This document shows positions 1,729 to 39,200 of a stretch of DNA of 42,765 nt, one piece after another. Position 1 is the stretch's first letter; each line of letters starts with the position of its first letter. The translations under genes were made by a program, and so were the position numbers. The notes under the pieces were generated by a model. That model worked only from the letters and a program-made list of their open reading frames with translations. It was not told the DNA's origin and searched no databases. This DNA comes from an uncultured Spirochaetota bacterium (GTDB lineage Bacteria; Spirochaetota; Spirochaetia; Treponematales; UBA12059): contig CALMRC010000110.1 in assembly GCA_937873275.1 (NCBI GenBank), positions 1 through 42,765 on the forward strand, written 5' to 3'.

Positions 1729-2702
1729 CTCGCCCGCAAGTCCACCTTCGACCCGCAGCTTCCCGTCCGCAGCCACTCGGCCACGTTGTCGACGGTCTGG
1801 ACGGCGTTGTTCGCCACCGCCTCCCAGGTGGATCCGGCCACGTGGGGGGAAAGGACCACGTTCGGAAGCTCGTGGATCGGGAAGCGGGAAGGGGCTCCGA
1901 CGGTCTCGCCCTTGGCGGGGTAGGTGTACCAGGTGTCGATGGCGGCCCCGGCCAGGATCCCGTCCGCCAGGGCCCGGTAGAGCCCTTCCTCGTCCACGAT
2001 GCCCCCCCGTCCCACGTTCACCAGGAACTTCCCCTTCATGGACCCCAGGATCCGCCGGGAGAGGAGCCCCTCGGTCTCCGCCGTCAGGGGCAGGGCCACG
2101 AAGACGACCTCGGCGTCCCGGATCGCCTCCTCCAGGTCGTGGACGACCCGGTCGAAGTGCGGGGGCGCTTCGGCGTCGGTCTTGCGTCGGTAGCCCGTGA
2201 CGGGGCAGTCGAAGGCCGAGAGGAGCCGGGCCAGGGCCCGGCCGATGGCCCCAGTGCCCAGGACCGCGCAGGGCTTGCCTTGGAGGGAGTGCCAGAAGTC
2301 CTCGTGCCCCTTGCCCACCCAGAAGCCGTGCCACGTCCCCTTCCGGAGGTCGTTGTGGAACTCGATGATCCGCCCGTAGGCGGCCAGGGTCATGGCCAGG
2401 GCGCGCTCCGCCACGCTGAAGGCGTTCCCGTGGCAGTTGAACACCTCCACCCCCCGGTCCAGTAGGAGGTCCGCGGGCAGGTGGTTGATCCCCACGAAGG
2501 GCACGAAGAGGGCTTTCAGGTTCCGGGCGGCCTCGAATTTCTCCCGGGGAACCGGGTTGGAAACGACGGCGTCCAGACTGTCGAATTCCGCGAGAGAACG
2601 GTCGGGATCCGCGACGAACTCGACGTCCGGAAAGCCCCGGGCCAGGCGCTCGATGTTGGATTTCCAATGCTGGTTGAGGGGAAGGCAGAAACCGATCTTC
2701 AC
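1722..2702 (-). CDS. D-isomer-specific 2-hydroxyacid dehydrogenase family protein
   Basis: This is an NAD(P)-dependent 2-hydroxyacid dehydrogenase of 326 residues, a normal family length. I chose the GTG at 2700-2702 because a GGAGG (2708-2712) lies 5 bp upstream; the ATG at 2762 would add 20 residues unlike the family. The nucleotide-binding loop is GTGAIG (residues 149-154). The substrate/catalytic Arg is in NVGRGG (R232) and the His in LSPHVAG (H287). Where most members have the catalytic Glu (D-V-F-E), this one reads D-T-W-Y, so Tyr259 takes that place. This may mark a distinct subfamily rather than an inactive protein. Substrate cannot be told. It converges on the upstream radical-SAM-like gene and diverges from the ankyrin lipoprotein gene. 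Confidence 0.85.
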   Translation of the reverse strand: MKIGFCLPLNQHWKSNIERLARGFPDVEFVADPDRSLAEFDSLDAVVSNPVPREKFEAARNLKALFVPFVGINHLPADLLLDRGVEVFNCHGNAFSVAERALAMTLAAYGRIIEFHNDLRKGTWHGFWVGKGHEDFWHSLQGKPCAVLGTGAIGRALARLLSAFDCPVTGYRRKTDAEAPPHFDRVVHDLEEAIRDAEVVFVALPLTAETEGLLSRRILGSMKGKFLVNVGRGGIVDEEGLYRALADGILAGAAIDTWYTYPAKGETVGAPSRFPIHELPNVVLSPHVAGSTWEAVANNAVQTVDNVAEWLRTGSCGSKVDLRASY

Positions 2703-2831
2703 GGGATCCTCCGGATGGATGGGCTTGAGATACAAGGTACCAAAGGGGATGCGGGGCGGCAACCGGTTCCGGGTTCGGACGGAGGCTCCCGCCCGGGTCG
2801 GCCAAAAACGGCGGCCGGCGCGGCAAACCCG

Positions 2832-2860
2832 TCGACGATTCGCCCCGGGTGCGGTACTAT
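2832..2860 (+). promoter_or_regulatory. Putative sigma-70 promoter of ankyrin lipoprotein gene
   Basis: TCGACG (2832-2837) and TACTAT (2855-2860) are separated by 17 bp. The predicted start is about 65 bp before the ATG at 2935. This is the only promoter-like element I find in the 232-bp divergent gap 2703-2934; the rest of the gap shows nothing recognisable. Confidence 0.45.
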
Positions 2861-2934
2861 CCTATCCAGATGAACGTACCCGGCGGCGCGGGCCTTCCGG
2901 CCTCGATCCGGCGCCCCGGGACCTGGGGGTGGCG

Positions 2935-5730
2935 ATGAAAAAACGTATGTCCCGGGCTATCGGGATCCTCCTTGCCTGGGCGGCCCTGTCCGCCTGCGTT
3001 TCCTCCCCTCCTCCCCCGGAGGAGACGGCGCCCGTCGAACCCGTGGAGCCCGACGTCACGTCCCTGGCGAGGTCCGGGGACCTGGCGGCCATCCGGGACC
3101 TGGGACGGGGTCGGGAACTGGTCAACAAGCCCGGCGCGAACGGGGACTATCCCCTCCACGCGGCCGCGGCGAGGCCGGAGCCCGAGATGGCGGTCCTCCT
3201 GCTGGACCAGGGGGCCGAGATCGATCCCCGGGACTCGGCGGGCAAGACCCCCCTGAAGCGGGCCCTGGAAGCCGGTTCCCTCCGGACCGCCGAACTCCTC
3301 GCGGCCCGGGGAGCGGACCTCTTCGCCGCGGACGCCTCCGGGGTCACCCCCCTGGACGACGCCCTGGCCAAGGGCGCGGATCCCCTGACCGCGGTCGTAA
3401 AGGCGGACAACGTCAACCGCCGGGGGCCCGACGGCCGGACCGCCCTTCACGCCGCGGCGGACCGCCTCCTTCTCCCCGCGGTGACCTACCTGCTCACCCT
3501 CTCCCCGGACCTCTCCGTCCGGGATAACGCGGGCCGCACAGCCCTGGACTGCGCCCTGTTGCATCCCTCCCGCAAGGAAAGCGCCCAGATCTCCCGCCTC
3601 CTGGTCCTTCGGGGCGCGGTCCCGGGATTCGGCGACTTCGACTGGTTCATCCTGGCGGCCCGGTCCGGGGACTGGGCCCGCCCCCGGTTCTCCGAGGGGG
3701 ATTCGGTCCTGCATCGGGCGGTCCGGAACAACCTCCGGGGCTTCGTGGAGTACTTCCTGGACGAGAACGTGCCCGTGGACCTCAAGAACGCCGCCGGGGC
3801 CACCAGCCTCCACGAGGCGGTCCGGGCGGGCCGCTACGACATCGCGGAGCTCCTCCTGGCCCGGGGGGCCAACCCCAACGCCCGGGACGGGTTCGGGAAC
3901 ACGGCCCTCCACATCGCCCTCCCCGAATCGAGCCGGAAGGAGGGGGTCGAGCTCCTCATCCGGTACAAGGCGGATCCCTCCCTGAAGGACCGGAGCGGGA
4001 ACACCCCCCTCCACGTCGCGGTCCAACTGGGTTACGGGACGGACACCGCCCCCCTCTTCCTGGACGCCGGGGCCTTCGTGGATTCCGCGAACGCCGAGGG
4101 CGACACGCCCCTGGCCCTGGCGGTCCGCAAGATGCGCCCCGACTGGAGCCGCCTCCTGGTGGAGAAGGGGGCCAACGTCTTCGCCCGCAACAGCACCGGC
4201 CTGACGCCCCTGTCCGCGGCCGTCGCCATCGGGCCCGAGGCGGTGGATCCCCTCCTCATCCCGGGGACGGCGAGGACCCGGGACGACTCCGGGAACGGCC
4301 TTTTGCACGCCGCGGTGACCCTGCGGGCCATCCCGGAAACCCTGGCCCTGATGATGGAGCGGGGCGTCGATCCGACCACCCGGAACAACGCCGGGGACAC
4401 CCCCCTGCACATCGCCGTCCGGACCGACCAGGCGGACTCCGCCCGGACCCTCCTGGCCGCGAAGGTCGACATCTTCGCGGCCAACGTGAAGGGCGAGACC
4501 CCCCTGGGACTCGCCCTGGCCTCCCCGTCCAATCCCAAGCGCTGGTTCTTCACGGAGGCCGTCCTGGCGGCCCGGGACGGGGCGGGGAACACTCCCCTCC
4601 ACTACGCGGCCTCCGAGGGACTCGCCCCGGCCGTCGCGTTCCTGGTCTCCGTCGGGGCTTCCCCGGAAGCCCGCAACGCGGACGGCCAGACTCCCCTGCA
4701 CCAGGCGGTCCGCAAGGACTCCCCGGACTGTGTCCGGGCCCTCGTGGCGGCGGGCGCGGACCTGTCCGCCCGGGATCTGACGGGCGCCACCCCCCTGCAC
4801 CAGGCGGTGTACTGGAACGCCCGGAAAAGCATGGACGCCCTGGTCCTGGCCGGGGCGGATATCGACGCCCGGGACTTCGCGGGGGCTTCCCCGGTGTTCG
4901 AGGCGGTCCGAAGGCAGGACGCGTCCGCCGTTCGCTGGCTCCTGGACCGGAAGGCCGATCCGGCGGCCCGCAACGACGCCGGCCGCACGCCCCTGCACGA
5001 CGCGGCGGCGAACGGGGACCTGGCCACGGTCCAGCTGCTCCTGGCCGCCGGGGCCGCGCCGAACGCCCGCGGAGACGGGGGCTCCACCGCCCTCCACGAG
5101 GCCGTGGCCGCGGACCGGGTCGACGTCATACCGGCCCTGATAGCCCGGGGGGCGGACATCCACGCCCGCAACTTCGCCGGCGAGACCCCCCTCACCCTGG
5201 CCCTGGGCCGGGGTTCCGAAGTGCTCAAGGCCCTCCTGAGCGGGGACGCGGTGCGATCCGTGGACTCCGACGGACGGTCCGTCCTGCGGGTCATCCTGGA
5301 GGCGAAGCCCTCCGCGGGCTTCGTGGACATCGCCCTGGCCGCGGGGGCCCGGACCGGGGACCGGGACCGGGCCGGCGCCACCGCCCTCCACGCGGCGGTG
5401 TCCCAGGGCTACACGGAGATCGTCCGCCGCCTGGTCGCGGGCGGGGCGGACATCTTCGCCCGGGACCGGGACGGCAACTCCCCCCTCTCCCTGGCCCTCG
5501 CCGCGGGCCCGGAAGCCCTGGACGCCCTGGTATCGGCGTCCAACGTCAACGCCCGGGACCTCCTGGGGAACCGGCCCCTGCACTACGCGGCCCAGGCCGG
5601 CGACGCGAAGGCGGCAGAATTCCTGTTGAGCCTGGGTGCCGACCGGGGCGCCCGGAATTCCGCGGGGGATACCGCGGCGGAGGTGGCTTCGAAACGGGGA
5701 TTCGCGGACCTTGCGGGGAAATTGAAGTAG
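2935..5730 (+). CDS. Ankyrin-repeat lipoprotein (about 26 repeats)
   Basis: The predicted lipoprotein has 931 residues. The start is the ATG at 2935 because it opens a signal peptide (MKKRMSRAIGILLAWAALSA) with lipobox LSAC and lipidated Cys21. The frame is open back to 2392, but that upstream part is antisense to the dehydrogenase gene. After a short Pro/Glu linker the rest is about 26 ankyrin repeats (consensus N/D-xxGxTPLHxA), ending with the protein. Ankyrin stacks bind proteins, so a role as an envelope scaffold is an inference. A shortened repeat type that follows an A-D-I-F-A motif recurs at repeats 3, 11, 14, 21 and 24, implying growth by duplication of blocks. Convergent with the sigma-factor gene. 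Confidence 0.9.
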   Translation: MKKRMSRAIGILLAWAALSACVSSPPPPEETAPVEPVEPDVTSLARSGDLAAIRDLGRGRELVNKPGANGDYPLHAAAARPEPEMAVLLLDQGAEIDPRDSAGKTPLKRALEAGSLRTAELLAARGADLFAADASGVTPLDDALAKGADPLTAVVKADNVNRRGPDGRTALHAAADRLLLPAVTYLLTLSPDLSVRDNAGRTALDCALLHPSRKESAQISRLLVLRGAVPGFGDFDWFILAARSGDWARPRFSEGDSVLHRAVRNNLRGFVEYFLDENVPVDLKNAAGATSLHEAVRAGRYDIAELLLARGANPNARDGFGNTALHIALPESSRKEGVELLIRYKADPSLKDRSGNTPLHVAVQLGYGTDTAPLFLDAGAFVDSANAEGDTPLALAVRKMRPDWSRLLVEKGANVFARNSTGLTPLSAAVAIGPEAVDPLLIPGTARTRDDSGNGLLHAAVTLRAIPETLALMMERGVDPTTRNNAGDTPLHIAVRTDQADSARTLLAAKVDIFAANVKGETPLGLALASPSNPKRWFFTEAVLAARDGAGNTPLHYAASEGLAPAVAFLVSVGASPEARNADGQTPLHQAVRKDSPDCVRALVAAGADLSARDLTGATPLHQAVYWNARKSMDALVLAGADIDARDFAGASPVFEAVRRQDASAVRWLLDRKADPAARNDAGRTPLHDAAANGDLATVQLLLAAGAAPNARGDGGSTALHEAVAADRVDVIPALIARGADIHARNFAGETPLTLALGRGSEVLKALLSGDAVRSVDSDGRSVLRVILEAKPSAGFVDIALAAGARTGDRDRAGATALHAAVSQGYTEIVRRLVAGGADIFARDRDGNSPLSLALAAGPEALDALVSASNVNARDLLGNRPLHYAAQAGDAKAAEFLLSLGADRGARNSAGDTAAEVASKRGFADLAGKLK

Positions 5731-27373: not shown

Positions 27374-30300
27374 CTAATACCTCACCACCAACACCTTCCG
27401 GATCTCGTCGATCCCGGGGGCCACGATGCGGATGAAGTACATCCCCCGGGCCACGGGATCCCCGGACCGGTTCCGGCCGTCCCAGGAGGCCGTGTAGTCC
27501 CCGGGGGTCATCGTCCCCCGCTGGAGGGAGCGCACCACGTCCCCGTCCAGGGTGAAAACCGTGATGGTCACCGGCCCCGCCTGGCCGATCGTGTAGTGCA
27601 GGCGGACCCGTTCCCCCCCGATCGGGTCGATCACGTTGTTCAGGATCGTGACTCCGCCCTTCTGGGTTACCAGGTCCCGGATGTAGATCCCGAAGGGCCG
27701 CACCCGCCGGAACCAGTCCGCGGGCAGGGCCGCGGCATCCGGGTCCATGTCCAGGCGGCCCGCGTAGAGGTCCGCGGGATACGGTCCGGGCAGGCGGAAG
27801 TAGAACTCGAACCGGGCCCGGTCGTAGATCTCCGTATCCGAGGCCAGGAACGAGTAGTCCCAGATCGGCGACGATCCGGCTCCCGAGTTCGTGGAGAATC
27901 CCGCGAAAGAATAGGAAGCCAGACCGGAGAAGTCCGGCTCGGCAAAGGTGGGCAGCCAGATCCCCGGAACCGCGCTGAGATACGCGGCCGGGACGTCGGA
28001 TTTATACAGGATCTGCGGCGCCGAAGCCAGCCCCAGGGCGTCCTCCGCCTGCAGGTCGAAATCCTGGTCCCGGAGGAACCGGGACCCGTCGAACAGGCGC
28101 ACGAAGCCCACGTACTGGCCCGAGGCGTCCAGCTCCGGGATCGTCGGGTAGTCAACGTCCGGCACGCCCGGCACGTAGGCCGAGTCCTTGGCCCAGAGGG
28201 GCCACACGAAGAAGGAGTTCGCATTAGCGCCACCCGAATAGCTCCAGGCTGTCGGTGTGTCCGAGGGGGGCACGGAGACGAGGAGGTCGGAGACGCGGTG
28301 GATGTTTTCCCCTCCGCGATCGAGCTGGAATGCCGGCCGGGTCATAGGACCCGGATTCGGTCCCGGGCTCCCGAAGGAACCGTACGTGTTCGGGTCGGCA
28401 AGGTAGCCGGTTGCGGGATCCGGGTAGGTCGGAGGGGGCGGACCGATGATCTGTCCGTTATAGGCGCCCTCCCAATACGGCGGAGAGCCTAGGTCCCGGG
28501 TCGTCGCGGTCACCGTCAGGTTCGTGGCCCCCGCCGCGAGAGCCGCTACGGTGTAAGGTCCTAGCCCAACGACGGCCTCTCGGGTCTGGGGGGCGGTTCC
28601 GGACACTCGGGCAAAGGATCCGGCGCCGAAGTCCCCGGCCACTAAAGTGCCGCCCCCGGTTTGCACCACCGGCTCGGAGAAGTGAACGAAAGTATCGCCG
28701 AAGGCGGGGACGCTCAGGGTATACCCGATGACCGGCCACGCCGTGTCGGAGGGAGTCATCCAGTCGGAGCCGCCCGCTCGGGAGAGAGTTCCCACGCGTT
28801 TGATTCCGGAGGTGGTATCAAAAAGCGTCTCGTTCCGTACGATGCGCCAATCGGGAGTGGTATCGGTGTCCAGATAAGGCTTTTCCACAAGATGGATATA
28901 GAAGGTGACTCCCGGTACAGGTCGTTCATAGCCGTTGACACCTTTGGAAACATCTACCTCGTAGCCGTCGACCTCGACGAGGAAATCCGAGAAGTCCGAG
29001 ACCGGCCCGGGAACCAGGGTTCCGATCGCGCCTTCCGCGGTCACCCGGATCCGGTCGATCTTGCCGTTGTAGTCCGAGTCCTCGGTGTAGCTGTAGATGA
29101 GGTACAGGTAGTCCAGCCACTTGAAGGAGAAGTACGTCGAGTATGGCGTGGCCGAGACGTTCGCGGGCACGGATATGGGGTTGGACCGGGCGTTGCTGTA
29201 GTAGACTTCGACGTATTGCATGTCCAATGTGGCTCCAGGCGTCAGGTCCAGGAACCAGAAATGGATATCGTCCCCGGGATCCGCGGGGGGATTACCGGGG
29301 TCGATGCCTGTGTCCGTCAATCTGTCCAGACGAATCGTGTTCGCCAGGTTGCTTCCCCTCACACGGAAGATTCCGCCCACGGAGATCTTCTGCCGGATCT
29401 GGATGCCCGCCCCGGCCAGGTCGTTCTCGAAGTGCACTTCCAGGCCCGGAGCCGCGGAGAGGACCTGGAATACGTACCAGGTGTTGTTGCCCCGGATCTC
29501 GATGGTCCCCGTCGATTTGTTGAAATCCACCGTTCCCGAGCGGGACACGAACCCGGCATCCCCCTCGTCGTTCCGCCAGTTCCCGTTTACCGTCAGCAGG
29601 TGGTTCGCCCCGCTCACGTCCAGGACACCACCCGCGGCGATGTGCAGGTCGTTGTTGACGGTGACCGGATTCTGCAGGGTGTGGACCCCCGCACCGGAAC
29701 TCGCTATGCGGAGGTCCCAGTAGGTGCCGCCCGCGAATCCCGTCGTGAATACCAGGCTTCCCGCCCCGGTGCCATAATATTCGGTGATCCCCGAGTCCGT
29801 GTCGAAGGTCGTGAAGGCATGGGTCGCCTGAAGTCCCGTCAGCCTAAGGGTTCCCAGATTTGACAGGGTCCCGATCGTAAAGCCCGAGGAACCCAGGTCC
29901 ATGATGCTGTTGGCTCCGGCCAAGGCGAGGGTGTTCAGGGTTATCGAGGACGAGTTCAAGATATTTACCCGGGCTCCGTCCTGGATCGTGAGGGAGGTCC
30001 CCGGCGCGCTGACCAGGTCCGCGGTCACAGAAAGGTCCGTGGCGGCCGCGAAGTCCGGTACCGTGACGGGCGCCGAGAACACGAGGTTCCCGTTCGCCCC
30101 CGCGTTCAGGGTCGTGACCCCCGCCATCGTGAAGGTGTCGAACACGAGGTTCTGCCCGGCTCCCCCGCCGGTGGCTATGGTTCCGCGGATCCAATTCGTA
30201 TTCGTCAGCGTCGCGGTCAGCCCGCCCGTGAATGTGAAGGAATCCGCATCCGCGTCCCCCAGAGTGAGGTTTCCGGTATTATCAAAAGTGCTGGATCCGG

Positions 30301-33300
30301 AAATCGAGTTGACGGCGCCCGTGAGGGAGACGTGATACGCGGTCGGTCCCGAGGCGAACAGATTACCACCCGAAAGGACAAGATTGCCCAGCACCAAAAC
30401 CGTCTGGCCGGCCTGGGTGTCCGAAACGGTCAGGGCGGCCGCGTTCACGTTCCCGGAGAAGGTCGTCCCGTTGGACTGGGTGATCGTGATCGTCCCGGGG
30501 GGCGTCGAGGCTCCTACGGCCCCGGTCACGGAAATCGTCCCGGCAGCCCCCGCGTTGATGCCCAGGTTCTGGGCGCCGTCGATGGTCGCGAATGTTACCG
30601 AGCTGCCGTTCGAGGTCACCGACACGGCGGCGCCGGACAACGATGTGGCCCCGAAGGATAGACCGCCCCAACCGGAAAAGTTCAATCCGTCGAAGAGCAC
30701 CGCCGCGATCGAAGTCCCGGTATCCCCGTTGCCCAGCGTGACGTTCCCGTCGAAGCGGACCTGGTTTCCCGCATTTGCGGCTTGGATCCCGGAAGCCCCG
30801 GCGAGGGTGTTCGAGAACCGCACGAGCCCGGTGACCCCGTTGGAGACCGTCAGGGCGGGTCCGAATCCGTCCCCGAGGTTGGAGACAGCGCCCGTAAAGG
30901 TGGTCGTCCCGGCAGCGATGCCCGCGGCCAGGATCAAGTCATGGTTGCCGGCGTTGAAGGTGGTGGAAAAGAGGATCACCCCGCCGCCGGAATTCAGGAT
31001 GGTATCTGCCCCGAGGGTGACGGCGTCCCCGAAGGTCATCGGTCCGGTGGTGCGCAGAGAACCGCCGTTCAAGGCGGTCGTTCCGACAGCGTTCGTCGTA
31101 AGGGAAGCCAGGGGGGTAATGCCGCCGATCGCGGCGCTCAGGGTGGTGGAACCCGTGCTGTTCAGGGTCAATCCAGGATTGCCGTTGACCGTTCCTCCCA
31201 GGGTGATGTTCCCGGCCCCTGCGCTCAGGATCGAGGTGTCCGACAGGACTACGCCCGTATCCCCGTCCCCCAAGGAGATGTTTTGGCCGGCTCCCAGGCC
31301 GGTCGCCACGGTGCCGGCTACATTGATACCGGATGGAAGAAGCGCCGTAACCCCGCCTGTAAAGGTCAGGCTGTCCCCCGCGTCGTTTCCGAGAGTCAGG
31401 GCCCCGGAGATCGAGAAGGTCGTCAGGTTCGTCACGGTCCCGCCGCCGTTCAGGGAGACGGCGCAGGCCGCCCCGACGGTCGTTAGCGCCTGGGCCGTGA
31501 GAGATCCGGTGACCGTCACGGATCCTCCGGTCTTGCCAGTCAGGTTCAAGGTTCCCGCGCCGAGGGCGGCGGAGGCTATCGTGTCCGCGCCGCTTCCCTG
31601 GAGGACCAAATCGAAGCCCGCCGAGGTCGTCGGACCCAGGGTGATGTTTCCCGTCCCCGTGGAGAGCGTGGTCGCATCCGTCAGGGTGACGTTCGAGACT
31701 CCGAAATCGAGGGCGTCATTGGAAGTGGTGATCGTGCCCTCGATGCTCTTGGGCCCCTGGGTCGCCGTCGCTCCGCCGTTGAAGGTGAGTCCGTTCGGTA
31801 TGGTCAGGGTCCCTGTATTCGAGAAGGTGACCGCGTTCGTAATCGTCCCGCCGTTCCCGAACCGGACATTATAGCCTTGGGCCGCGGTGTTTAAGGTTCC
31901 GATCGTCACGGCGTCCTGGAAATCGATGGTGCCCGCCGTGTTCGATGCGGTGACGGTCGTCGCGTTCAGGGTGGACTGGAAGGTCGTCCCGCCGGACTGG
32001 GTGACCGTGACCGTATTCATGGCCGTGGATCCCAGGGCACCGGAGATCGTGACCACGCCGGTCGTGTTGATGACGATTCCGGACGTGGCGGTTCCGTCGA
32101 CGGCCCCCGCGTTCACGGTGGTTGCGGCGCCGTTCCCGAGAGTCAGGGTCGCGCCCGCGTTGACCGTCACCCCGGCCAACGTGACGGTCCCGACGCCCGT
32201 CGTCCGGAGCACTGCGTTCGCGGTGATGGTCGTCGCGCTTCCACCAAAGTCCAGGTCGTTCGCTCCTGTCGCCTGTATAGTCCCCGCGAAACTTTGCGAG
32301 GCCGGTGCCGTAGCGGCGGCACCTCCGTCGAAGATGAAGCCGTTCGTGATGGTGAGGGCACCCGTGTTGGAGAAGGTCACGGTGTTCGTGACCGTGCCGC
32401 CGGCGATGGTGACGGCATATGCGGCGGCCGCCGTGGTCAAGTTCGTCGAGGAGAACGACGCCGAGGCGGTGAGGGATCCCCCGGTCTTGTTTATCGAGAT
32501 AGTCGAGAAGGTCGAGCCGGTCGGATTGAAGGACTGGGCCGCGCCTCCCGTGAACTCGAGGGTCCCCGTGGAAGCGAGGGTACCTCCCGCGGCCGCGAAA
32601 TTCCCCGCCACGCTGACGGTTCCGGAACTCGTAACGGATCCGGAATTGAGATTCAGGTTCCCCGTCACGGTCAGGGTCTGGGCTCCCGCGACGAGAGGAC
32701 CGCCTGCGATCGTTAGGTCCGTCGCCGTCAGGGCCGTGGAGAGAGTCTTCGAGAACCCCCCGCTCACCGTGACGGTCCCCAGGTTCACCTTGACCGCGTT
32801 GTTGTCCGTATATGTACCGGCGGCGACGCTGCTCGCCCCGCCCAGCACGAGGGTCGGATTATTGGCGATGGAATAGTTGCCAGTGTTCTGTATCGTCATG
32901 CTTCGGCGAACGGTTATCGTAGAGCCGACCAATGGGGTGAGCGTAACGCCCGCGGGAATGACTAGGTCGTAGAACTCGATCGAACCGGAGAACCCGGTGC
33001 CCAACGTGACGTTCTTCAGGTTGAAGGCGAGTGTCCCGCCGCTCTGGGAACAGAGCCCCGAGATCGTCAGGGTGCCTCCGTTCAAACCCGCATCCCAGGT
33101 GCAGGTCCCTCCGCTCACGGATAGGCTCGCGACCGTATTGGCGCCACCGTTGACGCCGGTCTGGGAGAACGTTCCGGAACTGACGATCATCGCGCCCGTG
33201 ACGAAGGCGTTCGTACCGACGGTGACGGTGCCGTTGAGGCCGTTCACCGCGAAACCCGCTCCGCCTCCGGCATAGGATCCCGCCAAGCCCAAGGTGCCTG

Positions 33301-36300
33301 CGGTCACGGTCGTCGAAGCCGTGACCGTCATCGTCCGGGCCGCTGGCAGCGAGAATATCCCTCCGACTCCCGTTTGCGAATACGATGCGACGCTGAAATC
33401 CGATCCCGCCGTGGCCGTGCCTCCGGTCTTCGTTACCGACAAGGTCGAAAGGGCGGATCCGCTGAAATCAAGCGCCTGGGCGGCCGTACCCGACAAGACC
33501 AGGGATCCCGTGGAAGACAGGCCCCCGCCGGAACGGACTATGTCCCCGGAGACCGTCACGGTTCCGGAACTCGTGACGAAGCCTCCCGCGAAATCCAGGG
33601 TTCCGGTGACCGACAGGGCAAAGCCGGCCGCCGACAGGGTCCCCGAGGTCAGGGTCAATGTCCCTGCCACGGTGACGGGTGCCGCCGAGACGGACACTCC
33701 GGCCGCGTTGGAGATCTCGAGGTTGTTGAAGGTATAAGCTCCGAAGCTTTGCGCGGCCCCCCCGTCGAACAGGAAAGCCGAGCCGGTGTTGTGGTTGAAC
33801 GTAGCCGGAGCGAACGTCCCACGGACATTCGTAGTACCGGAGGACGCCGTGAACGTTCCGCCGGATATCCCCGCTGTCAGGATGAGTGTCCCCGAACCGC
33901 CCGTCAGGACTCCCGTGTTGGTCACGGCCCCCGTCAGGGTCGCCGCCGCCGTCCCCAGGGTGATCGTCCCCGCGTTCCCCGTAGTCCCCGTAACCGACAG
34001 CACGTTGTTCCCCACCGCCAGCGTCTGGTTCGCCTGCACGTCCAGGTTCCCCAGCACCGTCAAGGCTCCCGTCACCGTCGTCGTATCCGTCCCCGAGTTC
34101 GTGACCGTCAGGTTGTTGAAGCTCTGGACGTTCGTCGTCAGACCCTGCGCCCCGTTCCGGGTCAGCTGCACCGTCCCGTTGTTGTGCCCAAAGGTCGACA
34201 GCGTCACAACCGCCCCGCCGAGGCTCGTCGTCCCGGAGGTGGCCTGGTAGTTCGGTATCGTGAAGTCTCCGTTGATCGTGACCCCCGCCGTCCCCCCGTT
34301 CAGGGTCCCCGTACCCGCCCCCGTCGCCGCACCCGTGATCGTCGCCCCAAGCCCCGCCAGCGACACGCTCGTCCCCGTCCCGACCGTCAGCGCCCCCGCC
34401 AGGTTCAACGCGTTCCCCGTGGCCGTCACCGTCGCCGCCCCGCCCGTCGTCAGGTTCCCCACCTGCACCGCCGTGTTGACCGTCGTGCCCGCGCCCGTCA
34501 TCGTGATCGTCGAGTTACCCGGAGTGTTGAACGTCCCCGACACGGCCAGGTTCCCGGACACGGATAGCGTGTTCGCCACCGTGTTCGTCACCGTCCCGGA
34601 GCTCGTGAAATTCCCCGTAACCGTCCACGACGCCCCCGCGGTCACCGTGAACGAGATCGTCCCGGTGTTCGTCACCGCGCCCGAGGCGATCGTGCTCCCG
34701 CCCGTCCGCGATATAGTCCCGGAGTTCGTCACGGCCCCCGTCAGGGTCGCCGCCGCCGTCCCCAGGGTGATCGTCCCCGCGTTCCCCGTAGTCCCCGTAA
34801 CCGACAGCACGTTGTTCCCCACCGCCAGCGTCTGGTTCGCCTGCACGTCCAGGTTCCCCAGCACCGTCAAGGCTCCCGTCACCGTCGTCGTATCCGTCCC
34901 CGAGTTCGTGACCGTCAGGTTGTTGAAGCTCTGGACGTTCGTCGTCAGACCCTGCGCCCCGTTCCGGGTCAGCTGCACCGTCCCGTTGTTGTGCCCAAAG
35001 GTCGACAGCGTCACAACCGCCCCGCCGAGGCTCGTCGTCCCGGAGGTGGCCTGGTAGTTCGGTATCGTGAAGTCTCCGTTGATCGTGACCCCCGCCGTCC
35101 CCCCGTTCAGGGTCCCCGTACCCGCCCCCGTCGCCGCACCCGTGATCGTCGCCCCAAGCCCCGCCAGCGACACGCTCGTCCCCGTCCCGACCGTCAGCGC
35201 CCCCGCCAGGTTCAACGCGTTCCCCGTGGCCGTCACCGTCGCCGCCCCGCCCGTCGTCAGGTTCCCCACCTGCACCGCCGTGTTGACCGTCGTGCCCGCG
35301 CCCGTCATCGTGATCGTCGAGTTACCCGGAGTGTTGAACGTCCCCGACACGGCCAGGTTCCCGGACACGGATAGCGTGTTCGCCACCGTGTTCGTCACCG
35401 TCCCGGAGCTCGTGAAATTCCCCGTAACCGTCCACGACGCCCCGGCCGCGGTGCCGAAGGTTACCGTTCCCGAGTTGTTCACGGTCCCCGTGGACGCGGT
35501 TCCTCCGGCCAGGGTGATGGACCCGGCGTTCGTGACAGCACCGGAGGACATGGAACCCGCGCCGGAGAAGGTGACGGCACCGCTGGCTCCGGTGTTCACG
35601 GCGGATGCGCCCGCGGCGATGGACCCCGTTGAAACGGTCACGGTTCCCGTCGTGACGGTGAGCCCCGTGACGGTCAGGGTCTGCGTCCCGACCTGCACCT
35701 GCGAGCCCGCGCCGCTCAGTGTAAGGCCGCCGGAGAAGGTCGCGGAGCCGGTCAGGACCAGGGTGTCGTTGGCTCCGTTCAGGGTGTGCAGGACGTTCGT
35801 GGAGAATCCGCCGATCCGCAAGGTCCGGCTGTTCAGGTCGATCTCGTTGCCCGACAGCGTCGTCGTTCCCGGGGACGAAAGGGTCACGTTGGCGGTCGAG
35901 GAGGAGACCCGGAAGGTCCCGCCCGTGTTGTTGATCGAAGTTCCGGCGGCCATGCTCAGGAGGACCGTGCCCGCCGCGGCCGTGGAGTTGAGGTTGAAGG
36001 TGGCGGAGTTCGCCAGGTTTCCGTTGACAGTCAGGCTGGTGGCCGTCGCGCCTCCCAGGGTGAAGGTACCGCCAGTTACGGACAGACTCGCGAAGGTCGC
36101 GGTCCCGAGCAGGTTCGTGGTCCCCGCCCCGGTCTTCTGGACGGCCCCGAAGGTCTGTCCGGCGGGCGTGATCGCCTGGGCGCCGCCGCCGTTCAGGACC
36201 AGTGTCGACCCGGCGGCGTTCGATAGGGCGCCGAAACTAAGGTTCCCCCCGACGGTGAAGGTGCCTGCTCCACCAAGATCGAGGGTCCCGGTCACTCCGA

Positions 36301-37198
36301 CGGCCCCTCCCACCGTAAGAACATTTCCTCCGGTGGCCAGGATACCCGTCACGCTCAAGGTCCCGGACAGGGAGGCCGCGGCCTGGAGGGTCACTCCTAC
36401 CGTGTTGGAGACTGTAAGGTTCGCGAGCGTGGATGTCGAGAGGTCCGCGGTCAGGGCGATGGCACCGGAAAGGGTCAAGGTTCCGGTCGAAGTGATGGAA
36501 CCTCCGGTTTGGGTAATGTTGCCCGTCACCGAAACGGCCTGCGCGCCAATATCCAGGGTGCCGTTTGCGAGATCCAAAGCGCGCATGGTGAAGCCGGCGG
36601 AAGCCGTGATCGTCGCCCCTCCGGAATTGCTCACTGTGACGTTGCGGAACGTGGATCCTGTCGGGTTGAAGGCCTGGGCGGCCCCGCCGTTGAAGACGAG
36701 CAGGCCGGAAGCGCCAGTGCCCGTGAAGGTCAGGCTTCCCCCCGTCCGGACCAGGTCACCGGCCAAGTTCAGGGTCCCTCCACTCGTGGAATAGGTGCCG
36801 CCTGTGCAGTTGAAGTCGCCGCCGACCGTCAAGGCGATCGTATCCGCGGTGAGGGTGCCCGTCAGGTTGACGTTGCCGTTGATAGTCAGGTTAGCGTTCG
36901 CCGTGAGGGTGCCCGTCAGGTTGACGTCGCCGGTTATCGTCATGGCCCCGGTCACCGTGACCGAGGCCCCGGTGTCGATCGTCAGGCTGGCGAAGGTGCC
37001 ATCGACTCCGGTGGAGGGGTATCTCGGCATCCCGGTCGGGATGATGACATCATCGCCGTTGCCGCTGATCGGAAGGGTGTCCCAATTCAGCGCGCTGTCC
37101 CAATTGGTGCTGTTGGCCCCCGACCAGGTACAGGTCGCGGCTGTGACGGCCAGTCGGACACCGAGGAGAATTATCGCCGCTGCAAGGAATTTCCGCAT
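27374..37198 (-). CDS. Giant secreted repeat protein with FlgD-like C-terminus
   Basis: The protein has about 3,274 residues. I chose the ATG at 37198 because it starts a signal peptide (MRKFLAAAIILLG, cleavage near residue 20) behind an AGGGGTGG site; the open frame continues upstream only as a shadow. After a TCTWSGANSTNWDSALNW opening comes about 2,600 residues of Thr/Gly/Ser/Ala/Asn-rich short repeats (G-x-L-T-x-T-G-x-x), probably a beta-helix. Two copies of a 239-residue block lie at about 586-824 and 855-1093. Near 2718 is a calcium-loop-like DSDYNGKIDRI. The last about 85 residues match FlgD-type Ig/sorting domains, ending KVLVVRY. Likely a surface adhesin or stalk protein (inference). 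A TATACT -10 is at 37235-37240 with a weak -35. Confidence 0.87.
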   Translation of the reverse strand: MRKFLAAAIILLGVRLAVTAATCTWSGANSTNWDSALNWDTLPISGNGDDVIIPTGMPRYPSTGVDGTFASLTIDTGASVTVTGAMTITGDVNLTGTLTANANLTINGNVNLTGTLTADTIALTVGGDFNCTGGTYSTSGGTLNLAGDLVRTGGSLTFTGTGASGLLVFNGGAAQAFNPTGSTFRNVTVSNSGGATITASAGFTMRALDLANGTLDIGAQAVSVTGNITQTGGSITSTGTLTLSGAIALTADLSTSTLANLTVSNTVGVTLQAAASLSGTLSVTGILATGGNVLTVGGAVGVTGTLDLGGAGTFTVGGNLSFGALSNAAGSTLVLNGGGAQAITPAGQTFGAVQKTGAGTTNLLGTATFASLSVTGGTFTLGGATATSLTVNGNLANSATFNLNSTAAAGTVLLSMAAGTSINNTGGTFRVSSSTANVTLSSPGTTTLSGNEIDLNSRTLRIGGFSTNVLHTLNGANDTLVLTGSATFSGGLTLSGAGSQVQVGTQTLTVTGLTVTTGTVTVSTGSIAAGASAVNTGASGAVTFSGAGSMSSGAVTNAGSITLAGGTASTGTVNNSGTVTFGTAAGASWTVTGNFTSSGTVTNTVANTLSVSGNLAVSGTFNTPGNSTITMTGAGTTVNTAVQVGNLTTGGAATVTATGNALNLAGALTVGTGTSVSLAGLGATITGAATGAGTGTLNGGTAGVTINGDFTIPNYQATSGTTSLGGAVVTLSTFGHNNGTVQLTRNGAQGLTTNVQSFNNLTVTNSGTDTTTVTGALTVLGNLDVQANQTLAVGNNVLSVTGTTGNAGTITLGTAAATLTGAVTNSGTISRTGGSTIASGAVTNTGTISFTVTAGASWTVTGNFTSSGTVTNTVANTLSVSGNLAVSGTFNTPGNSTITMTGAGTTVNTAVQVGNLTTGGAATVTATGNALNLAGALTVGTGTSVSLAGLGATITGAATGAGTGTLNGGTAGVTINGDFTIPNYQATSGTTSLGGAVVTLSTFGHNNGTVQLTRNGAQGLTTNVQSFNNLTVTNSGTDTTTVTGALTVLGNLDVQANQTLAVGNNVLSVTGTTGNAGTITLGTAAATLTGAVTNTGVLTGGSGTLILTAGISGGTFTASSGTTNVRGTFAPATFNHNTGSAFLFDGGAAQSFGAYTFNNLEISNAAGVSVSAAPVTVAGTLTLTSGTLSAAGFALSVTGTLDFAGGFVTSSGTVTVSGDIVRSGGGLSSTGSLVLSGTAAQALDFSGSALSTLSVTKTGGTATAGSDFSVASYSQTGVGGIFSLPAARTMTVTASTTVTAGTLGLAGSYAGGGAGFAVNGLNGTVTVGTNAFVTGAMIVSSGTFSQTGVNGGANTVASLSVSGGTCTWDAGLNGGTLTISGLCSQSGGTLAFNLKNVTLGTGFSGSIEFYDLVIPAGVTLTPLVGSTITVRRSMTIQNTGNYSIANNPTLVLGGASSVAAGTYTDNNAVKVNLGTVTVSGGFSKTLSTALTATDLTIAGGPLVAGAQTLTVTGNLNLNSGSVTSSGTVSVAGNFAAAGGTLASTGTLEFTGGAAQSFNPTGSTFSTISINKTGGSLTASASFSSTNLTTAAAAYAVTIAGGTVTNTVTFSNTGALTITNGFIFDGGAAATAPASQSFAGTIQATGANDLDFGGSATTITANAVLRTTGVGTVTLAGVTVNAGATLTLGNGAATTVNAGAVDGTATSGIVINTTGVVTISGALGSTAMNTVTVTQSGGTTFQSTLNATTVTASNTAGTIDFQDAVTIGTLNTAAQGYNVRFGNGGTITNAVTFSNTGTLTIPNGLTFNGGATATQGPKSIEGTITTSNDALDFGVSNVTLTDATTLSTGTGNITLGPTTSAGFDLVLQGSGADTIASAALGAGTLNLTGKTGGSVTVTGSLTAQALTTVGAACAVSLNGGGTVTNLTTFSISGALTLGNDAGDSLTFTGGVTALLPSGINVAGTVATGLGAGQNISLGDGDTGVVLSDTSILSAGAGNITLGGTVNGNPGLTLNSTGSTTLSAAIGGITPLASLTTNAVGTTALNGGSLRTTGPMTFGDAVTLGADTILNSGGGVILFSTTFNAGNHDLILAAGIAAGTTTFTGAVSNLGDGFGPALTVSNGVTGLVRFSNTLAGASGIQAANAGNQVRFDGNVTLGNGDTGTSIAAVLFDGLNFSGWGGLSFGATSLSGAAVSVTSNGSSVTFATIDGAQNLGINAGAAGTISVTGAVGASTPPGTITITQSNGTTFSGNVNAAALTVSDTQAGQTVLVLGNLVLSGGNLFASGPTAYHVSLTGAVNSISGSSTFDNTGNLTLGDADADSFTFTGGLTATLTNTNWIRGTIATGGGAGQNLVFDTFTMAGVTTLNAGANGNLVFSAPVTVPDFAAATDLSVTADLVSAPGTSLTIQDGARVNILNSSSITLNTLALAGANSIMDLGSSGFTIGTLSNLGTLRLTGLQATHAFTTFDTDSGITEYYGTGAGSLVFTTGFAGGTYWDLRIASSGAGVHTLQNPVTVNNDLHIAAGGVLDVSGANHLLTVNGNWRNDEGDAGFVSRSGTVDFNKSTGTIEIRGNNTWYVFQVLSAAPGLEVHFENDLAGAGIQIRQKISVGGIFRVRGSNLANTIRLDRLTDTGIDPGNPPADPGDDIHFWFLDLTPGATLDMQYVEVYYSNARSNPISVPANVSATPYSTYFSFKWLDYLYLIYSYTEDSDYNGKIDRIRVTAEGAIGTLVPGPVSDFSDFLVEVDGYEVDVSKGVNGYERPVPGVTFYIHLVEKPYLDTDTTPDWRIVRNETLFDTTSGIKRVGTLSRAGGSDWMTPSDTAWPVIGYTLSVPAFGDTFVHFSEPVVQTGGGTLVAGDFGAGSFARVSGTAPQTREAVVGLGPYTVAALAAGATNLTVTATTRDLGSPPYWEGAYNGQIIGPPPPTYPDPATGYLADPNTYGSFGSPGPNPGPMTRPAFQLDRGGENIHRVSDLLVSVPPSDTPTAWSYSGGANANSFFVWPLWAKDSAYVPGVPDVDYPTIPELDASGQYVGFVRLFDGSRFLRDQDFDLQAEDALGLASAPQILYKSDVPAAYLSAVPGIWLPTFAEPDFSGLASYSFAGFSTNSGAGSSPIWDYSFLASDTEIYDRARFEFYFRLPGPYPADLYAGRLDMDPDAAALPADWFRRVRPFGIYIRDLVTQKGGVTILNNVIDPIGGERVRLHYTIGQAGPVTITVFTLDGDVVRSLQRGTMTPGDYTASWDGRNRSGDPVARGMYFIRIVAPGIDEIRKVLVVRY
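33921..34636 (-). repeat. 716-bp direct repeat, second (C-terminal) copy
   Basis: Reads the same base for base as 34728-35443, offset 807 bp (269 codons), inside the giant gene. Identity ends sharply at both borders. Confidence 0.9.
34728..35443 (-). repeat. 716-bp direct repeat, first (N-terminal) copy
   Basis: The partner of 33921-34636, separated from it by a 91-bp stretch that encodes a variant of the same motif. I found no mismatch by eye. Neutral third-position changes would be expected if the duplication were old, so it looks recent or maintained by gene conversion. Confidence 0.9.
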
Positions 37199-37290
37199 AC
37201 CGATCCACCCCTTGGAGACAAATCGCCCTACATGAGTATACCTCAAGAGTATCGGCGCTTTCCACGGGAAGGAGCGCCCGGAACCGGCCC

Positions 37291-38982
37291 TTATCGCCAG
37301 GCCATGACCGTCGCCTTGTCGGCGGGAACCGTGTTCCCGTCCCGGAAGACCACGTAGAGGTCGCCGACGGAATCTATGGCGGTTTTCAGGCCGTTCGCGA
37401 CCCCTGCGCTGAATCCCGGCGTTCCGAGGGTTTTCCAAGATAAGCCATCGTACTCGACCGCGGTGGCCTTGCCGGCAGGGATGGTCCCGGCATCCTTGAA
37501 TACCACGAACAGGGCGCCGTCGGCCGCGACCGTCAGGGAGACGAAATCGGCGGCCCCGGAGGAAACCGGCGATCCTCCGACGATGTTCCAGTCCGCGCCG
37601 TCCCACCGCATGACCGTCGCCCGGAGGGTAGGATTCGCGCTCCCTCCGCTGAACGCAACGACGGGCGCGCCCCCGCCGTCGAACGCCAGCGATATTGAGG
37701 TGATCTCGCCGGAAGAGAACCCCGAAGTGCCCACCAGGGACCAGGACGCTCCACCCCATTTCATGACGGAGGAACCCCGGGTCGCCGTGGAGCCGTCCTT
37801 GAATGCCAGATAAAGGGCGCCGTCGGATCCGATCGCCAGGGAAGTCCCTTCGATGGTGCCCGGGGAAAAGCCTGCCGTCCCGACGGCTTCCCAGGAAGCG
37901 CCCGAATACTTCAGGACGGTGGCCTTGGCCGGGGGATCCGTCGCCCCGTCCTGGTAGGCGATATAGGGTATGCGTGTCGACCCGCTTTCATGGACAGCCA
38001 GGGACGGGAACAGAGCCTCTCCGCCGGAGATTCCCGCTCCTCCCAAGGTGGTCCATGCGCCCGCCGAGTATTTCCGGACTGTGACCTTTGCGGATACGGA
38101 CGCGTCGTAGTAGGAGAGATACACCGCGCCTTGGGAATCCACGACCAAGGACGTATCGTAGGCTCCGGCGGCCGAGACGCCCGTTCCCCCGAGGGCCGCC
38201 CAAGAGGAACCGTTGAATCTCATCACCGTGGCCTTGTTCACCACGGACCCGTCCCGATACCCCACGTACGGGGACCCGTCGGGACCCAGGTCGATGGACG
38301 GCTCGAACACCTCCCCCCCCGAGAACCCAGCGCTTCCCACGACCTCCCAGGTCCGGACATGGAATGTCCCCACAGCGGCGTCGCTGTTGCTGTAGCCCGC
38401 TGCCGCGGCGACGGCGGTGATCGTCCTGGTGTCGCCGGGATCCACGGAAATGGCCGCGGAGTAGACGGCCGAGGTGCCCACGACAGGGGTGGAACCGTCG
38501 GTCGTGTAGTATATCGTGGACCCTCCCGTGGCGCAGGTGATCGCTACGCTCTGAGTCTCGTCGTAAGTGCCGGCTGCTACAGAGAAATCCGGCGTAGCGG
38601 CCTTCCCGCTCGGGGCCGCCGGGACTGCCCGTTCCACCCCCGCGGACTTCGCCCCCTCCCCGGCCTCGTTCACGGCGGACACCTTGTACCAGCCGTAGAA
38701 CGGCAGCAGGTAGGAGATTCCCGTAGTGGAACTCACCTCGGAATAGGCCGCGATTCCATCGGATGAATGGTAAACCTTGTATGAATCCGCCTCGGAAACG
38801 GAAGACCAGGAAAGCGTAGAATTACCGTTACCATCCGTAGATATGCTCAGCCCCAGCGGCGTCCCGGGCAGGGCGGGCGGCGTGGGCCCCGTGGGCGAAC
38901 CGCAGGCGGCCAGAAGGAGGCATAGAGCAATCAGTGGTGTGGATCCGAGTTGGCGGCGGGCGACGGGATTCCGATTTTTCAT
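37291..38982 (-). CDS. Seven-repeat propeller lipoprotein with Fn3-like domain
   Basis: The predicted lipoprotein has 563 residues. The ATG at 38982 has GGAGGAG about 4 bp upstream and opens a signal peptide with lipobox LAAC (Cys27). Residues about 35-130 look like a fibronectin-III-type domain. Residues about 136-210 match a chitobiase/hexosaminidase C-terminal-type domain (STIYYTTDGSTPV). From about 215 to the end there are seven repeats of about 50 residues (W-x-x-V/L-G-x-x-G-F-S onward, then K-A-T-V-x-x-x-x-G-x-x-W), which should form a seven-bladed propeller. No catalytic site is evident. It is 92 bp upstream of the giant gene on the same strand, so the two may act together at the cell surface (inference). 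Confidence 0.88.
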   Translation of the reverse strand: MKNRNPVARRQLGSTPLIALCLLLAACGSPTGPTPPALPGTPLGLSISTDGNGNSTLSWSSVSEADSYKVYHSSDGIAAYSEVSSTTGISYLLPFYGWYKVSAVNEAGEGAKSAGVERAVPAAPSGKAATPDFSVAAGTYDETQSVAITCATGGSTIYYTTDGSTPVVGTSAVYSAAISVDPGDTRTITAVAAAAGYSNSDAAVGTFHVRTWEVVGSAGFSGGEVFEPSIDLGPDGSPYVGYRDGSVVNKATVMRFNGSSWAALGGTGVSAAGAYDTSLVVDSQGAVYLSYYDASVSAKVTVRKYSAGAWTTLGGAGISGGEALFPSLAVHESGSTRIPYIAYQDGATDPPAKATVLKYSGASWEAVGTAGFSPGTIEGTSLAIGSDGALYLAFKDGSTATRGSSVMKWGGASWSLVGTSGFSSGEITSISLAFDGGGAPVVAFSGGSANPTLRATVMRWDGADWNIVGGSPVSSGAADFVSLTVAADGALFVVFKDAGTIPAGKATAVEYDGLSWKTLGTPGFSAGVANGLKTAIDSVGDLYVVFRDGNTVPADKATVMAWR

Positions 38983-39047
38983 GAAGCTCCTCCGCGCCGG
39001 TCTGTTGCGGAGCAGGGGCCGAACCATCGGGCCGGCAAGTATCTGTA

Positions 39048-39076
39048 AGTATATCGCCTCGCGGAATGCAATACAA
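39048..39076 (-). promoter_or_regulatory. Promoter of propeller lipoprotein gene
   Basis: On the minus strand TTGTAT (39071-39076) and TATACT (39048-39053) are exactly 17 bp apart, about 65 bp before the ATG. The facing + strand carries a TTGACA (39079-39084) without a good -10. A 14-bp palindrome GGCCCCGCGGGGCC lies at 39153-39166 in the divergent gap. Confidence 0.7.
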
Positions 39077-39200
39077 TTTTGACAAATAAAATCCATTCTC
39101 CGGGGTACTCCCCGCGCAACCCTTTTCCGAGTACACTTGTCCAATATCCGGAGGCCCCGCGGGGCCCCCCATCCGTGCCGCGCCGCATCGAAGGTATATC

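What the first reader, a model, noticed from the sequence alone, without database searches (positions are those of the whole stretch)
33921..35443. Apparently identical 716-bp duplication inside the giant surface-protein gene
Two blocks 807 bp apart read the same at every base I compared, including third positions, and stop abruptly at both sides. This implies recent duplication or ongoing gene conversion, and the array could expand or contract by recombination to vary protein length.
Basis: seen in the sequence. Interest (0 to 1): 0.62.

Follow-up and report, generated by a model that had tools for sequence, protein, structure and literature searches.

The report
Duplicated stalk module in giant gene
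A giant, probably cell-surface protein of an uncultured spirochaete carries two letter-perfect copies of a 239-amino-acid stretch of its stalk, most likely from recent recombination that lengthens or swaps the stalk; this is a known way for bacteria to vary surface proteins, here with an unusual sign that the duplicated piece came from elsewhere.

Summary
33921-34636 and 34728-35443 are identical over 716 bp, start-to-start spacing 807 bp (269 codons, in frame), with sharp edges. They lie inside one 3,275-aa gene (27374-37201, minus strand) with a conserved N-terminal part, a repetitive middle and a C-terminal FlgD_ig domain. It is not a plain one-step tandem duplication: the 91-bp spacer is a diverged relative of the sequence before the first copy. 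Both copies plus spacer share a codon style (ACG/GGG/GTG/GCG) foreign to the gene and to a 360-kb genome sample, and that style starts exactly at the repeat edge (35443). In the same-genus relative the neighbours and both gene ends are conserved (about 80-95%), but the middle is not. A finished genome (size matches Spirochaeta caldaria H1T) has a 57%-identical module in its ortholog, as a 2.8-copy in-frame array (lag 1,887 bp, 99.7% identical), also a codon-style island. Best reading: a recombining, variable adhesin-type stalk that acquired and duplicated a module. Copy number variation is not shown; two copies in a 200-contig draft is probably a minimum. It works like a Periscope protein; membership unproven. 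New member of a known kind.

The parts
27374..37201 (-). Giant gene, 3,275 aa: signal-peptide-like start, N-proximal part conserved in the genus, long repetitive middle (stalk), conserved C-terminal part
   Evidence: Open frame 27374-37759; start chosen from MRKFLAAAII and upstream AAGGGG; conservation against G001
34728..35443 (-). Repeat copy 1 in gene order (716 bp, codons about 587-825)
   Evidence: Zero mismatches to the other copy at lag 807; G3/C3 change point falls at 35443
34637..34727 (-). 91-bp spacer between the copies, same codon style as the copies, diverged paralogue of the segment preceding copy 1
   Evidence: Protein alignment score 70 to the left flank against 35 +/- 6 (max 57) for shuffles and at most 64 for any other stalk segment
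33921..34636 (-). Repeat copy 2 in gene order (716 bp)
33869..35443 (-). Tract of foreign codon style (third-position G among G+C 0.69 against 0.41 in the rest of the gene)
   Evidence: Two-change-point fit, LLR 68 against at most 11 in 15 shuffles; skew about +0.40 against -0.13 +/- 0.09, max +0.18 in 790 windows outside the gene
35444..36301 (-). Conserved N-proximal segment, 82-93% aa identical to the same-genus relative, ending at the repeat
27377..28381 (-). Conserved C-terminal part (80-95% aa identity to G001) ending in a FlgD Ig-like domain
   Evidence: PF13860, 37.7 bits, cut-off 27

Best explanation
The repeat is a genuine in-frame doubling of a 269-residue module (U-spacer-U) in the variable stalk of a giant adhesin-like surface protein of an uncultured Treponematales-type spirochaete. 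Homologous recombination between related stalk segments, within the gene and with incoming DNA, keeps replacing and multiplying modules while both ends of the protein are conserved. Here a module tract with its own codon style was spliced in at a conserved motif (GASWTVTGNFTSSGTVTN), bringing or then forming two identical copies. Each 807-bp step adds or removes 269 residues without breaking the frame, so further recombination between the copies would change stalk length. Shown: exact in-frame repeat, spacer, codon-style edge at the repeat edge, conserved ends with a non-conserved middle, and a parallel array in a finished genome. Inferred: surface location, import, the order of events, ongoing length change, and the adhesive or spacer role.
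For: Exact 716-bp repeat at lag 807 = 3 x 269. Codon-style segment starts at 35443, exactly the repeat edge, and ends about 50 bp past the other edge; unmatched in 790 windows of the same genome. Locus is syntenic with same-genus G001 (glgA 95%, AMP-binding 94%, OTC 94%); giant-gene ends 80-95% identical, middle mostly 25-40%. G031 (3,239,340 bp single contig, the size published for S. caldaria H1T in PMC3739177) has an orthologous gene (44% at the C-terminus) with 2.8 in-frame copies of a 1,887-bp unit, 11 mismatches in 3,440 bp, holding a module 57% identical to this one, and GC3 0.76 against a genome mean of 0.45 with a GC3 edge at the array edge. Other orthologs carry in-frame repeats of various ages (G010, G417, G025), and full-length ones range from about 2,300 to 7,462 aa. 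PF13860 at the C-terminus.
Against: No isolate or read data, so length variation is unobserved. No donor with the same DNA was found (best protein matches 57-61%), and the module tree is poorly supported. The AlphaFold2 model of this stretch has low confidence (pLDDT 59) and no significant PDB match (best E 0.27). Repeats in G001 are not exact, so the behaviour is not universal.
Confidence: 0.62

Rival explanations
1. Plain recent tandem duplication of native stalk sequence, with the spacer or left flank changed afterwards by gene conversion from another repeat of the same gene; the codon style is an old local quirk and nothing was imported.
For: Spacer is an in-register relative of the left flank; many paralogous stalk repeats at about 30% identity exist in the gene as conversion donors; the first 50 residues of the unit are still 78% identical to G001.
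Against: Codon style switches exactly at the repeat edge and includes the spacer; beyond residue 100 of the unit, G031 of another family matches as well or better (64%, 40%, 68% per 50-column block) than same-genus G001 (35%, 41%, 26%).
Confidence: 0.22
2. Assembly artefact: two similar but different modules, or a strain mixture, were collapsed so that copies look identical, or the copy number is wrong.
For: G000 is a 200-contig draft; 716 bp cannot be bridged by short reads; a homologous array in G010 holds a run of about 387 N and a contig of G008 starts inside the gene, within a repeat; published cases of identical surface-protein repeats under-counted by short reads (PMC6868369).
Against: The junctions copy 1-spacer and spacer-copy 2 need at least two copies in the real DNA; a finished genome shows the same kind of array; no other exact repeat over 55 bp in 360 kb.
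Confidence: 0.13
3. A dedicated variation system (diversity-generating retroelement, invertase, transposon or phage cassette) makes the copies.
For: None found directly.
Against: No recombinase or reverse transcriptase domain in the ten flanking proteins scanned; no related module in phages, plasmids or viral contigs; no G-quadruplex motifs in the tract.
Confidence: 0.03

Closest known systems
Periscope proteins (SasG, Rib, Sgo_0707; PMC8201768)
   Same: Surface-type protein with conserved ends and a stalk holding long repeats identical at DNA level; in-frame repeat unit allows length change by recombination
   Different: Only two copies seen, separated by a diverged spacer; no strain comparison; repeats match no known domain family, not discrete Ig/SHIRT/Rib domains; spirochaete without Gram-positive cell-wall anchor
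CdrA of Pseudomonas aeruginosa (listed as variable-length in PMC8201768)
   Same: Large Gram-negative repetitive adhesin whose repeat region varies in size
   Different: CdrA is a two-partner-secretion substrate (from own knowledge); no such secretion domain was found here
Ilm of Yersinia ruckeri (described in PMC6868369)
   Same: Repeats identical at DNA level in an adhesin, known to be misjudged by short-read assembly
   Different: More than 20 Ig-like domains of about 300 bp; here two copies of an 807-bp module
   Same: Same C-terminal part, same module family, in-frame near-exact array, same G-rich third positions
   Different: Unit 1,887 bp and 2.8 copies; module 57% identical

Membership tests
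Periscope proteins | Tandem stalk repeats highly identical at DNA level | tested here: met
   716 bp at 100%, though with a 91-bp diverged spacer and only two copies
Periscope proteins | Repeat number varies between strains | not testable with these tools
   No second isolate or reads; between species the length varies from about 2,300 to 7,462 aa, which is not the same test
Periscope proteins | Functional N-terminal domain projected from the cell surface | tested here: inconclusive
   Signal-peptide-like start by eye and a conserved N-proximal region; no known domain found in the whole protein
Periscope proteins | Anchor to the cell surface | tested here: inconclusive
   C-terminal FlgD_ig, which is not by itself an anchor
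Diversity-generating retroelement target | Reverse transcriptase and template repeat nearby, A-directed mutations between copies | tested here: not met
   Copies identical; no reverse transcriptase among the flanking proteins scanned
T9SS sorted protein | T9SS translocon (SprA) in genome | tested here: inconclusive
   No PF14349 match, but no control genome rang either

The most novel reading that the evidence does not exclude
Stalk modules with their own codon style move horizontally between spirochaete families into the variable middle of this giant gene and are multiplied on arrival: the same module lineage forms exact in-frame repeats inside a codon-style island both here and in a finished genome of another family.
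Probability: 0.33. Interest if true: 0.6.

Novelty: new member of a known kind. Interest (0 to 1): 0.38.

Why it matters
It documents a fast-changing, recombining stalk with fixed ends in a little-studied spirochaete lineage, and the match between repeat edges and codon-style edges in two families gives a testable handle on how giant adhesins gain modules. It also warns that such genes in draft metagenome assemblies probably under-report copy number.

Tried and rejected
Simple one-step tandem duplication: rejected, because it would give an 807-bp, not a 716-bp, identical run. G-quadruplex-driven recombination: no motif in the tract or the G031 array. Codon style from expansion of short repeats inside the unit: internal self-similarity is only marginal (0.484 at lag 134 against a 95% limit of 0.463). 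Phage, plasmid or viral source: no match. Another copy elsewhere in the genome: none. Structure: the AlphaFold2 model is all short strands but low confidence; its best Foldseek hits are mostly beta-helix autotransporter passengers with non-significant E-values, so it is not used as proof of a beta-helix. Module tree: closest by path to G031, then G387 and G417, rather than same-genus G001, but most forks are unsupported. The T9SS check was uninformative.

Full report
Observation. The two blocks are identical over exactly 716 bp (33921-34636 and 34728-35443), lag 807, zero mismatches, with matching falling to chance outside. The lag is 269 codons. The gap between them is 91 bp. There are 183 fourfold-degenerate codons in the block, none changed. 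In 360 kb sampled from the same draft genome (the window plus 20 contig stretches), the next longest direct exact repeat is 55 bp, so this is not a background feature. The window is contig C110 of a 3.6-Mb, 200-contig draft, 97% complete.

The gene. Minus-strand gene 27374-37201 (3,275 aa), start chosen at MRKFLAAAIILLGVRLAVTA with AAGGGG upstream. Pfam and NCBIfam find nothing credible in the whole protein, but the isolated C-terminus has FlgD_ig (PF13860, 37.7 bits, cut-off 27). The middle is Thr/Gly/Val/Asn-rich and repetitive. AlphaFold2 on a 600-aa stretch gives all short strands but pLDDT 59, and the best Foldseek hits, mostly autotransporter beta-helix passengers, are not significant. 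A beta-helix stalk is therefore an inference.

Why it is not a plain tandem duplication. A one-step tandem duplication with period 807 gives an 807-bp identical run. Here 91 bp of the period differ. The spacer's protein is nevertheless an in-register relative of the segment just before copy 1 (alignment score 70, against 35 +/- 6 and max 57 for shuffles, and at most 64 for any other stalk position). So the unit really is 269 residues long, and either the left flank or the spacer was exchanged.

Codon style. From 35443 the gene switches from C-ending to G-ending codons: in the tract ACG is 85% of Thr, GGG 75% of Gly and GCG 81% of Ala codons, against 33%, 24% and 34% upstream and 31%, 36% and 34% in a sample of the window's other genes plus one further contig stretch. 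A two-change-point fit places the segment at 35443..33869, LLR 68 against a maximum of 11 in 15 shuffles; its left edge is exactly the repeat edge. Among 790 windows of 239 codons outside the gene the highest third-position skew is +0.18; the tract has about +0.40. The simplest reading is that both copies and the spacer came in together from a different background, with the crossover in a conserved motif at the start of the unit.

Comparison with relatives. The giant gene's residues 300-600 are 82-93% and its C-terminus 80-95% identical, but residues 660-2900 fall to about 20-55%, mostly 25-40%. The transition lies at the duplicated unit. The unit's first 50 residues still resemble G001 (78%), while past residue 100 the better match overall is G031 of another family. 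G031 is a 3,239,340-bp single contig, the published size of S. caldaria H1T (PMC3739177, finished with a 12-kb paired library). Its ortholog contains 2.8 in-frame copies of a 1,887-bp unit (L034:2820-8146) with 11 mismatches in 3,440 bp. That array is also a composition island: GC3 0.76 and skew +0.36, against genome windows with GC3 0.45 +/- 0.11; the GC3 segment 2822..8056 starts at the array edge. Most other orthologs have uniform, C-leaning third positions, so the G-leaning style marks these arrays rather than the protein type, with partial exceptions in G387, G044, G085 and G023. Near-exact or diverged in-frame repeats of other periods occur in G010, G417 and G025. Full-length orthologs run from about 2,300 to 7,462 aa.

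Mechanism. Established knowledge: long, near-identical repeats inside a gene recombine and change number in surface adhesins (Periscope proteins, PMC8201768). Applied here: stalk modules are exchanged and multiplied by homologous recombination, in steps that keep the frame, while ends needed for export and function stay fixed. The exact copies are the youngest event. Import from another genome is likely but unproven, since no donor DNA was found in the more than 700 genomes searched with the module nor in phage, plasmid or viral collections.

Assembly. A 716-bp exact repeat with a 91-bp spacer cannot be bridged by short reads; an assembler would walk the loop at least once. Thus two copies is best taken as a minimum, and a few differences between copies could have been smoothed. 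The read type of this draft is not known to me. Similar arrays break or gap assemblies in relatives (G010 has about 387 N, and a G008 contig starts inside the gene). PMC6868369 documents short-read under-counting in a comparable adhesin.

Verdict. Real, well observed, and ordinary in kind: a repetitive surface-type gene with a fresh duplication. The unusual part is the coincidence of repeat edge and codon-style edge, seen in two families.

Noticed in passing
36849-36960: A 54-bp in-frame tandem repeat (2.1 copies, 81% matches) near the start of the same giant gene.
   Followed up: no
37294-39144 (minus): Upstream gene for a predicted lipoprotein-like protein with chitobiase C-terminal/Fn3-associated domain is only 56% identical to its G001 counterpart, while genes beyond it are 94% identical: variability extends to the neighbour.
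   Followed up: partly
2392-5730 (plus): 1,112-aa protein with at least a dozen ankyrin repeat matches; its start also has raised third-position G skew.
   Followed up: no
L032:5578-5963 (G010): The 7,462-aa ortholog in G010 contains a run of N inside its repeat region, so its length is not reliable.
   Followed up: partly
L101 and L100 (G085, G044): Homologous genes in single-contig genomes of another family show one short window of strongly G-leaning third positions (+0.59, +0.39); G085 also has a 70-bp exact in-frame repeat nearby.
   Followed up: no
L099 (G387): A relative from another family of the class has a 45-47% identical, G-leaning module; a TGA was counted inside one match there, so that gene may be broken or frameshifted.
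   Followed up: no
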